A stretch of DNA of 39,500 nt, taken from assembly GCA_019694145.1 (NCBI GenBank), contig JAIBCJ010000008.1, positions 1-39,500 of the forward strand, given 5' to 3'. The translations under genes were made by a program, and so were the position numbers. The notes beneath the pieces are model-generated. The model saw only the letters and a list, made by a program, of their open reading frames with translations, ran no database searches and was not told where the DNA came from. Below, in pieces: positions 17,159-39,453 of the stretch; the first letter of the stretch is position 1, and each line of letters starts with the position of its first letter. Source of the DNA: Solirubrobacterales bacterium. GTDB lineage: Bacteria; Actinomycetota; Thermoleophilia; Solirubrobacterales; 70-9.

Positions 17159-17455
17159 ATGACCTACATCTCCGAGATTTCCTGGCACGTGACCCCGTTC
17201 CGGTCGCAGCGCTGGATCGACACCTGGGAGCCGGCTGCCGCCAAGGCAACCGAATACGGCGCCACGGAATGGGAGATCTACCGCTCGGACGAGGACCCGC
17301 TGCTCTTTCGGCAGGTGACTCGCTGGGAGAAGAAGTCGGACTTCGAAGCCTGGTGGTACTCGGAGGAGATTTCGGCGATCCGCGCCGAGGTCGTGGACCT
17401 CTACGACAAGCCCCTCCTCCCCGTCTGGTGCTCGCGGGTCATAGCCTCAAGCTGA
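17159..17455 (+). CDS. Small ABM-like (dimeric alpha/beta-barrel) protein downstream of ccr
   Basis: 98 aa, rich in Trp (six) and acidic residues. The layout ISEISWHVTPFRSQRWIDTWEP / EIYRSDEDPLLFRQVTRWEKKSDFEAWW is strand-helix-strand-helix, as in ferredoxin-like ABM/heme-degrading-monooxygenase folds. No catalytic residues can be assigned. It lies 30 nt after ccr and before a strong terminator, so it is co-transcribed with ccr and is the only other member of that operon. A role linked to Ccr is inference. Confidence 0.75.
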   Translation: MTYISEISWHVTPFRSQRWIDTWEPAAAKATEYGATEWEIYRSDEDPLLFRQVTRWEKKSDFEAWWYSEEISAIRAEVVDLYDKPLLPVWCSRVIASS

Positions 17456-17477: not shown

Positions 17478-17510
17478 AAAGGGCTCCGGAAATCCGGGGC
17501 CCTTTTCTTT
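17478..17510 (+). terminator. Intrinsic terminator of the ccr operon
   Basis: AAAGGGCTCCGGA (17478-17490), loop AA, TCCGGGGCCCTTT (17493-17505): 13-bp stem with one G-T pair, followed by TCTTT. Confidence 0.85.
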
Positions 17511-17532
17511 GCATCCCGTCACCTGTGGTCAC

Positions 17533-17691
17533 GCCGTGGGGCCGGGTGGGCGTCACCGGGAAGCGGCAAACACCTCGCGCGGCATTCAGCCGCGCTCCGC
17601 CTGAGTATCCCGGTGACGCCCACCCGGCCCCACGGCTACTCCGAAGCGCTCCTCGCTGAGTGTCCCGGTGACGCCCACCCGGCCCCACGGC
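17533..17691. repeat. 28-bp sequence in three copies: two direct, one inverted
   Basis: The block beginning CCCGGTGACGCCCACCCG and ending CCCCACGGC occurs at 17609-17636 and 17664-17691 (55 bp apart, within a longer tandem unit starting CTGAGT). Its exact reverse complement is at 17533-17560. The inverted pair could form a 28-bp stem around a 48-nt loop, which itself contains GCGCGGC-ATTCA-GCCGCGC (17577-17595). The whole 17456-17928 gap (473 bp) has no gene; besides the terminator it holds these repeats and the two GGTGCC/GGCACC hairpins. Confidence 0.85.
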
Positions 17692-17741
17692 TACTCCGGA
17701 TCGCGGAGGCCCTTCCCCCTCACCTGCCCTTTCAGGCCCCG

Positions 17742-17788
17742 AGGTGCCGCACATTCAGGACCGTGATGGGCCTACACGTGCGGCACCT
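17742..17788. repeat. GGTGCC/GGCACC hairpin, variant copy
   Basis: AGGTGCCGCAC (17742-17752) and GTGCGGCACCT (17778-17788): 11-bp stem, 25-nt loop. It shares the outer GGTGCCGCA/TGCGGCACC with the 45-bp element found at 17868 and 33743. Confidence 0.65.
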
Positions 17789-17867: not shown

Positions 17868-17912
17868 GGTGACGCAGGTTTGCGACCTCTCCGGTAGCAA
17901 ACCTGCGGCACC
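17868..17912. repeat. 45-bp hairpin element, copy 1
   Basis: Inner stem GCAGGTTTGC (17874-17883) and GCAAACCTGC (17897-17906) with the 13-nt loop GACCTCTCCGGTA. The outer GGTGAC/GGCACC arms extend it to 16 bp with one mismatch. Copy 2 at 33743-33787 is identical in stem core and loop. Confidence 0.85.
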
Positions 17913-17928: not shown

Positions 17929-18633
17929 TCAGTACGGGTCGGGGATTGCTACGCGGATGTCGGCGAAGGAGCCGATCGCGCCGCGGGCGCTCTGCTTGGC
18001 GCCGATCGAGATGCTCGTGTCCTGCCCGACCAGTGAGGTGCCCTGGTCGTCACGGGCGGCGGCAACCTTGTGGCCGTTGACGAAGCCAACCAGCTGGGTG
18101 TTGCCCTTCTGGCCGGTGAAGGCGCGAAGGGTCAGGCGGTTCGCCTTGCCGGGACCCTTCACCTTGCGGCCGGCCTTGCGACTGCCGAAGTTGATGATCT
18201 GCCCGTTCGGCTGGACCTTGCGCAGGCCGTAGCGGCGCGTGGAGGGCCAGACAACCAGCTGGTAGCGGCTGCCGTCGTTGTTCTGACGGAGGCTGACCCC
18301 GGCATATGCGCGGCGCAGGACCTTGGGCGGGGTCGATTTGAAAATCCTGGCGATCGCGGTGACCTGCAGGTTCTTGCCGGCCATCGGGACCTTGTAGAAG
18401 CACTCCCTCGCCTTCTTCCCGAGCTGGAAGCGGAAGGCGTTGGGGGAACCGCCCCGTTCGCAGTTGGCGCGCGGCGCCATCTGATGGATTTCGGCACGGC
18501 TGTCAGTGGTGTCGAGGTCGTTCTTGTAAATCGTGATTGTGCTGGCGGCGGCGTTGGCAGCGAAAAGCACCGCGCCAAGCGACACCGCGGCCACGATGGC
18601 ACGCAGCAGGGGGTTTTTGGTCAGGGAGCGCAT
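17929..18633 (-). CDS. Secreted protein with beta-sandwich (LamG/concanavalin-like) appearance
   Basis: 234 aa. Signal peptide at residues 1-30 (LTKNPLLRAIVAAVSLGAVLFAANAAAS). The mature part reads like a jelly-roll domain: FRFQLGKKARECFYKVP, LQVTAIARIFK, YAGVSLRQNNDGSRYQLVVWP, NRLTLRAFTG, QLVGFVNGHKVAAARD and GSFADIRVAI. The 'accretes sugar/lipid' type function is not shown; no catalytic residues are visible. Two cysteines (about 58 and 77) may pair. TAGGCT with a 6-nt spacer to the ATG suggests a leaderless mRNA, divergent from ecm. Confidence 0.75.
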   Translation of the reverse strand: MRSLTKNPLLRAIVAAVSLGAVLFAANAAASTITIYKNDLDTTDSRAEIHQMAPRANCERGGSPNAFRFQLGKKARECFYKVPMAGKNLQVTAIARIFKSTPPKVLRRAYAGVSLRQNNDGSRYQLVVWPSTRRYGLRKVQPNGQIINFGSRKAGRKVKGPGKANRLTLRAFTGQKGNTQLVGFVNGHKVAAARDDQGTSLVGQDTSISIGAKQSARGAIGSFADIRVAIPDPY

Positions 18634-33689: not shown

Positions 33690-33787
33690 GCAGGTCGGGC
33701 GGGGTTCGCCCCGCCTTCCAACTGAAACCCCTCCGATACGACGGTGCCGCAGGTTTGCGACCTCTCCGGTAGCAAACCTGCGGCACC
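33690..33787. repeat. Composite repeat: hairpin 1 of the two-hairpin family fused to 45-bp hairpin element, copy D
   Basis: Hairpin 1 form: GGCGGGG (33698-33704), loop TTCG, CCCCGCC (33709-33715), then AAACCCCTCC where hairpin 2 should begin. Instead the 45-bp element follows at 33743-33787: GGTGCCGCAGGTTTGC (33743-33758), loop GACCTCTCCGGTA, GCAAACCTGCGGCACC (33772-33787), a perfect 16-bp stem. Confidence 0.85.
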
Positions 33788-39335: not shown

Positions 39336-39344
39336 CTTCGGTTA

Positions 39345-39413
39345 GAGCGGGTCCGGGCAGTACACCCCTCCTCGGCCCGAAACGTCGTCGGGGCGCACTG
39401 CCCGGACCCGCTC
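39345..39413. terminator. Long inverted repeat after the sucCD-like operon
   Basis: GAGCGGGTCCGGGCAGT (39345-39361) and its exact complement ACTGCCCGGACCCGCTC (39397-39413): 17-bp perfect stem, 35-nt loop. There is no T run, so it may be a 3'-end protector or attenuating hairpin rather than a simple terminator. Confidence 0.55.
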
Positions 39414-39453
39414 AACCAAACTCGTTCGAAAGGGTGGCCCGAAACGTCGTCGG
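39374..39453. repeat. 18-bp direct repeat
   Basis: GGCCCGAAACGTCGTCGG at 39374-39391 (inside the loop of the preceding hairpin) and again at 39436-39453. Past 39336 no gene is seen to the window end (165 bp). Confidence 0.7.

What the first reader, a model, noticed from the sequence alone, without database searches (positions are those of the whole stretch)
17533..17691. Nested inverted/direct repeat cluster after the ccr terminator
A 28-bp block occurs twice directly (55-bp period) and once inverted, making a potential 28-bp perfect stem with a smaller hairpin in its loop. It sits with two other hairpin elements in the largest gene-free gap of the window (473 bp). This density of palindromes could be a regulatory RNA, a recombination hotspot or a nucleoid-protein binding region.
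Basis: seen in the sequence. Interest (0 to 1): 0.6.

Follow-up and report, generated by a model that had tools for sequence, protein, structure and literature searches.

The report
Dispersed long hairpin repeats behind genes
The repeated 28-letter block is the arm of a roughly 115-letter folding DNA repeat, found about 20 times in this uncultured bacterium and in several sister species, usually just behind genes; it resembles the known 'REP' repeats but is much longer, is constrained to fold on one particular strand, and has no recognisable enzyme to move it.

Summary
A 29-bp block (17533-17561) pairs perfectly with two direct copies (17608-17636, 17663-17691). Simulated windows gave at most 14 bp. 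The block belongs to a ~115-nt element ('A', 17525-17645) followed by a truncated second copy. The two other hairpins ('B', 'C') are separate short repeats. All three are dispersed in the genome (about 12 full A copies plus several at contig ends). A also occurs in six sister species of an uncultured Solirubrobacterales genus, with related subfamilies in two more.

Across 34 A copies the stem covaries strongly. Wobbles are almost all G.U on the minus strand (94 against 6 A.C). A middle helix also covaries. The minus strand carries a GTAG tag at its 5' foot, an asymmetric ACUC bulge and a UGAAU loop. Copies sit a median 13 nt behind stop codons, are present or absent at orthologous sites, and have apical parts homogenised within genomes.

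Best reading: a new, unusually long GTAG-tagged REP-like repeat, spread as a folded single strand and now lying in 3' intergenic regions. No Y1/RAYT transposase, reverse transcriptase or TnpB was found in carrier genomes, so the mobiliser and any RNA role are open. Nucleoid binding and assembly artefact find no support.

The parts
17525..17645 (-). Full element A (about 115-121 nt). The constrained strand is the minus strand: 5'-GTAG foot, P1, ACUC bulge, P2, P3, back down P1, GTGACCAC foot
   Evidence: Dispersed copies; alignment and structure; strand asymmetry
17533..17561 (.).
17608..17636 (.).
17565..17570 (-). P2 helix, 3' side on the minus strand (pairs with 17596-17601)
   Evidence: Covariation among 19 distinct linker pairs, 0 of 2000 shuffles
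17596..17601 (-). P2 helix, 5' side on the minus strand
17577..17595 (-). P3 apical hairpin, 7 bp, loop UGAAU on the minus strand (ATTCA on plus)
   Evidence: Nearly invariant in 34 copies, with one C-G/G-C swap pair 17:17
17603..17606 (-). Asymmetric bulge ACUC on the 5' side of the minus-strand fold
   Evidence: Conserved in A and seen in subfamily E
17636..17639 (-). GTAG tag at the 5' foot of the minus-strand hairpin
   Evidence: 29 of 34 copies have GTAG
17646..17698 (-). Truncated second copy of A (its 3' half in plus orientation), holding the third 29-bp block at 17663-17691
   Evidence: Matches A positions 68-119 at 94%; direct repeat D1
17743..17787 (.). Hairpin B, 45 nt, dispersed short palindromic repeat
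   Evidence: About 20 places in this genome, three more in G011 and G013
17868..17912 (.). Hairpin C, 45 nt, dispersed short palindromic repeat of the same general form as B (GGTG.CGCA...TGCGGCACC)
33743..33787 (.). Second copy of hairpin C in the window
   Evidence: 98% match
17478..17511 (+). Intrinsic terminator of the ccr-ABM side; conserved neighbour, not part of the repeats
   Evidence: Hairpin plus T-run also in G011, G010, G001, G014
17159..17455 (+). Flanking gene, ABM-domain protein downstream of ccr
   Evidence: PF03992; conserved in the genus
17929..18633 (-). Convergent flanking gene, hypothetical protein with no Pfam match; the minus strand of A lies downstream of it

Best explanation
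The cluster is an accretion of three dispersed palindromic repeat families between two convergent genes. The main one, A, is a non-autonomous REP-like element. On the minus strand it has a GTAG foot, a 29-bp stem P1, an asymmetric ACUC bulge, a covarying helix P2 and an apical hairpin P3 with loop UGAAU. Shown: it is dispersed, present at some orthologous sites and not others, located just behind stop codons, constrained to fold on one strand, and homogenised within genomes. Inferred: copies spread when a HUH-type or other hairpin-recognising enzyme acts on the folded single strand, as RAYTs do for GTAG REPs, or by templated copying between elements. They persist behind stop codons because insertion there is tolerated, and where read through they would form very stable 3'-UTR hairpins. 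The third 29-bp block is half of a second copy.
For: Dispersed copies in the own genome and six sister species. 98.8% of stem cells paired on the minus strand against 89.6% on plus, 14 of 34 pairs with double changes, 0 of 500 shuffles. 94 G.U against 6 A.C on the minus strand, repeated in subfamily D, 25 against 3, with no C/T bias in unpaired columns. P2 covaries. GTAG foot in 29 of 34 copies. Median 13 nt behind stop codons; TAG stop in 11 of 12 when 5 nt or closer. Present/absent at orthologous sites. Inner part identical among dispersed copies of one genome but different at orthologous sites. No target-site duplication. GTAG REPs share the tag, the position, TAG stops and G-T pairs (PMC3733652).
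Against: No Y1 transposase (PF01797) was found in any carrier genome, although the identical apical parts suggest recent activity. The stem is 29 bp where GTAG families have 5-13 bp. The GTAG end points away from the adjacent stop codon, whereas in described GTAG REPs the GTAG end often supplies the TAG stop. Some sites are shared between species, so many copies are old. Movement itself was not observed, and cells in the pair counts are not independent.
Confidence: 0.6

Rival explanations
1. A is a structured regulatory RNA element of 3' UTRs: on the minus strand it is transcribed as read-through from the convergent gene and acts as an mRNA stabiliser, a factor-dependent terminator, or a shield against antisense transcription into the neighbouring gene.
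For: G.U tolerance, compensatory changes and conserved unpaired motifs. In 19 of 36 classified copies the upstream gene on the constrained strand runs into A, and A stands just before the other gene's 3' end.
Against: The asymmetry is the same in tandem contexts where no minus-strand gene feeds A (24 G.U to 1 A.C) as in convergent ones (48 to 4). The element is absent at the same site in several relatives. The ccr side already has its own conserved terminator.
Confidence: 0.25
2. A is an ordinary MITE, moved by a cut-and-paste (DDE) transposase through its inverted terminal repeats.
For: Short, non-coding, inverted repeats, dispersed, site-polymorphic.
Against: No target-site duplication signal in 38 copies. 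Strand-specific wobble is not expected for duplex recognition. The apical part is structured and conserved.
Confidence: 0.08
3. The palindromes are binding sites for a nucleoid-associated or other double-strand DNA-binding protein.
For: Palindromic, intergenic, multi-copy.
Against: A double-strand site has no reason to prefer G.U on one strand or to conserve an asymmetric bulge and loop.
Confidence: 0.03
4. Assembly artefact.
For: Several A copies in G000 lie at contig ends, and one copy sits in a contig binned as Geminicoccaceae.
Against: Independent MAGs from several studies carry A inside long contigs, including a 10-contig genome with about 14 copies, and sites are shared between species.
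Confidence: 0.02

Closest known systems
GTAG-tagged REP sequences / BIMEs with RAYT transposases (PMC3733652, PMC2817692)
   Same: GTAG at the 5' foot of a hairpin, multi-copy, mostly behind ORFs and often within 20 bp of stop codons, TAG stops frequent, G-T stem pairs, subfamilies with compensatory stem changes, accretion of several repeats in one gap.
   Different: Stem 29 bp against 5-13 bp; length about 115-135 nt against 20-40; structured apex with conserved bulge and loop; tens of copies rather than hundreds; GTAG end points away from the adjacent stop; no RAYT in carriers; no actinobacterial term occurs in PMC3733652.
YPAL / RU-2 palindromic elements of Yersinia (reviewed in PMC2229807)
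   Same: About 168 bp, internal inverted repeats, no TA ends, not A+T-rich, empty and filled sites known, long RNA stem-loops.
   Different: YPAL makes target duplications of 3-26 bp, A shows none; different sequence and host; strand asymmetry is not described there as far as read.
ERIC/IRU and Correia/NEMIS elements (reviewed in PMC2229807)
   Same: Intergenic, about 100-155 bp, long RNA stem-loops, suggested RNA-level effects on neighbouring mRNA.
   Different: They have TA target duplications and terminal TA; A has a GTAG foot and no duplication.
Integron attC sites (from general knowledge)
   Same: Hairpin of one strand lying right behind a stop codon, conserved foot and variable apex.
   Different: Ends of A have GTT on the 5' side and AAC on the 3' side, the reverse of the attC core-site order; copies are dispersed, not in a cassette array.

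Membership tests
GTAG REP / REPtron system | Unpaired GTAG (or close variant) at the 5' foot of the hairpin | tested here: met
   29 of 34 copies have GTAG, the rest are one or two letters away
GTAG REP / REPtron system | Small palindrome, 20-40 bp, stem mostly 6-13 bp | tested here: not met
   Stem P1 29 bp, element about 115 nt (definition from PMC3733652)
GTAG REP / REPtron system | Predominantly downstream of coding regions, between convergent or tandem genes | tested here: met
   31 copies a median 13 nt behind a stop codon; convergent 19, tandem 10 of 36
GTAG REP / REPtron system | A RAYT (Y1 tyrosine transposase) in the genome, flanked by the repeat | tested here: not met
   PF01797 absent from all carrier genomes; these are incomplete MAGs and loss is possible
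GTAG REP / REPtron system | Single-stranded hairpin recognised and cleaved at GTAG by the transposase | not testable with these tools
   Only indirect: strand-specific wobble on the GTAG strand
MITE of a DDE transposase | Target-site duplication flanking the inverted repeats | tested here: not met
   Flank words no longer than in shuffled flanks, 186 of 500 shuffles as high, 38 copies; copies may be old
Known Rfam RNA family | Match above the family's gathering score | tested here: not met
   None in the window; permissive search of A and of D/E loci gave only sub-threshold generic hairpin hits
omega-RNA / TnpB or retroelement RNA | TnpB or reverse transcriptase in carrier genomes | tested here: not met
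   PF07282 absent from all 18 genomes; PF00078 only in G004, which has no A
Integron attC | RYYYAAC ... GTTRRRY core-site order and cassette array | tested here: not met
   By inspection of the alignment ends; dispersed copies. No integrase search was made; the attC definition is from general knowledge

The most novel reading that the evidence does not exclude
A is a lineage-specific mobile structured element (ssDNA or RNA) whose conserved bulge and apical loop are read by an unidentified, genome-specific partner that is neither a Y1 transposase, a reverse transcriptase nor TnpB. That partner both spreads the element and homogenises its apical domain across copies while the stems drift by compensatory change, which would be a new kind of hairpin mobility or 3'-UTR control system.
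Probability: 0.2. Interest if true: 0.75.

Novelty: new variant of a known kind. Interest (0 to 1): 0.45.

Why it matters
GTAG REP repeats have been described mainly in Proteobacteria, where they are short and usually tied to RAYT transposases. A long, GTAG-tagged, strand-constrained palindrome with a structured apex, homogenised in actinobacterial genomes that lack a recognisable RAYT, would mean that another enzyme or a conversion process can keep such repeats alive. It also gives a natural test of whether GTAG hairpins are selected as single-stranded DNA or as RNA.

Tried and rejected
Rfam at gathering and permissive thresholds: only generic hairpin hits, mostly miRNA. Y1 transposase, reverse transcriptase and TnpB as mobiliser: none in carriers; the G004 Y1 protein is unusually lysine- and isoleucine-rich for this GC-rich genus and may be contamination. 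Target-site duplications: none. Plasmid, phage and viral occurrence: none. Mutational strand bias as the cause of the G.U asymmetry: argued against by unpaired columns. Dependence of the asymmetry on a neighbouring minus-strand gene: not seen, tandem and convergent contexts agree. attC site: end motifs in the wrong order. Strand asymmetry in B/C: 15 A.C against 8 G.U on plus over few copies, not decisive. Literature searches for palindromic repeats in Solirubrobacter or Actinobacteria gave nothing relevant in the held library.

Full report
Observation. The loop holds a 7-bp hairpin, and two further hairpins lie at 17743-17787 and 17868-17912. In 20 simulated windows with the same dinucleotide statistics the longest perfect inverted repeat was 14 bp. 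The gap of 473 bp lies between an ABM-domain gene downstream of ccr (PF03992) and a convergent hypothetical gene. An intrinsic terminator at 17478-17511 serves the ccr side and is conserved in relatives without the repeats.

What recurs. A search of the window's own genome with the gap gave 73 matches that fall into three groups: A (window 17525-17640), B (17743-17787) and C (17868-17912, also at 33743-33787 in the window). A has about 12 full copies in this incomplete genome plus several cut by contig ends, about 14 in the 10-contig relative G010, and copies in G007 and G011-G014. A pattern scan of one genome per species returned only Solirubrobacterales/Actinomycetota MAGs (67-14, HKST-UBA63/64, SCN18 and a WHONDRS bin) and one contig binned as Geminicoccaceae. 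That contig carries the same locus as a G011 copy, so it is most likely misbinned. No copy was found in viral contigs, plasmids or phages. The third 29-bp block is half of a second copy (17646-17698): it matches A positions 68-119, and its inner edge resembles another G000 subfamily (G000:C21).

Structure and strand. An alignment of 34 copies folded on the minus strand gives a long stem P1 and an apical hairpin P3. Of pair cells, 98.8% are standard pairs, and 14 of 34 pairs show changes on both sides; none of 500 shuffles comes near and slid versions collapse. On the plus strand only 89.6% are paired. The difference is wobble: on the minus strand 94 stem cells are G.U and 6 are A.C. Subfamily D, found with the covariance model, repeats this (25 against 3). 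Within subfamilies, one-sided departures from Watson-Crick gave 21 G.U and 2 A.C, while unpaired columns show no C/T against A/G bias, so a mutational strand bias is unlikely. Between P1 and P3 a short helix P2 covaries among the 19 distinct linker pairs (0 of 2000 shuffles), behind an asymmetric bulge ACUC that recurs in subfamily E with a different apex. Cells are not independent because copies are related, but the pattern recurs in separate families and positions. The minus strand also has GTAG at its 5' foot in 29 of 34 copies.

Position and history. With home-made gene calls, 31 copies have a gene ending towards the non-GTAG end: median distance 13 nt, 25 within 26 nt. When 5 nt or less separate them the stop is TAG in 11 of 12, against 24 of 67 for genes in the same loci, a background that includes some of the adjacent genes. 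The window gap is 473 bp in G000; it is about 350 bp in G011, with an A-like left-foot remnant, and about 190, 170 and 75 bp without A in G010, G001 and G014. Behind another gene A is present in G000, G013 and G007 and absent in G014, G001, G011, G010 and G015. About eight sites are shared between species, yet the inner part at a shared site usually matches the element's own genome: five G010 copies share one identical inner part and four G000 copies share another, while orthologous pairs differ by 10-38%. L009/L041 is an intermediate case, of the subfamily common to G000 and G013. Stems within these groups vary, mostly by G.U or double changes. No target-site duplication is seen.

Mechanism. 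Shown: dispersal, site polymorphism, folding constraint on one strand, stop-codon proximity, homogenisation. Inferred: the element is recognised as a folded single strand. GTAG REPs share the tag, the location behind ORFs, the TAG-stop habit and G-T pairs (PMC3733652), and an E. [quoted passage not shown] But no PF01797 protein was found in any carrier genome, nor a reverse transcriptase or TnpB, and the stem is far longer than in described GTAG families. I therefore call it REP-like, not a member. An RNA role is possible: in 19 of 36 copies the minus strand would be read-through RNA of the convergent gene. The same asymmetry in tandem contexts (24:1) and convergent ones (48:4) suggests that the constraint belongs to the element itself rather than to its local transcript.

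Limits. Genomes are MAGs of about 73-96% completeness. Covariance-model hits in other genera and the link of subfamilies D and E to A rest on shared feet and general architecture and were not tested further. B and C were characterised only as dispersed hairpins. Gene calls were made with a simple codon-usage script, not a standard gene finder.

Noticed in passing
window 39337-39420: Another long hairpin (17-bp stem) about 10 nt behind a TAG stop, of a different dispersed family with a shared core CTCGGCCCGAAACGTCGTCGG in nine species of the genus. Contig C131 begins with 52 bases identical to 39374-39425, so the two contigs may be neighbours.
   Followed up: partly
L015:1469-1620 (G000:C75) and L098-L109: Subfamily D: about 133-nt hairpins with the same GTAGCCG foot but a different, highly conserved apex (AAAGUGGCUUCCGAUUACUGCUC...). 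No Rfam match; in L015 one lies 4 nt from an A copy.
   Followed up: partly
L103:2050-2181 and L104:1001-1132 (G007): Two D copies that are identical in sequence and share the right flank but differ in the left flank, a hint of recent duplication or movement.
   Followed up: no
L079 (JAGRGG010000012.1): A contig binned as Geminicoccaceae carries the same A locus as Solirubrobacterales HKST-UBA64; probably misbinned.
   Followed up: partly
L013, L018, L022 (G000), left of A: Tandem copies of the left foot GTGGTTACGCCGCGGGG stand in front of A, as if element ends accumulate.
   Followed up: no
G027, G034, G066, G069, G072, G073: Covariance-model hits of 39-60 bits in two other genera of the family; they may be related long hairpins or generic GC-rich palindromes.
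   Followed up: no
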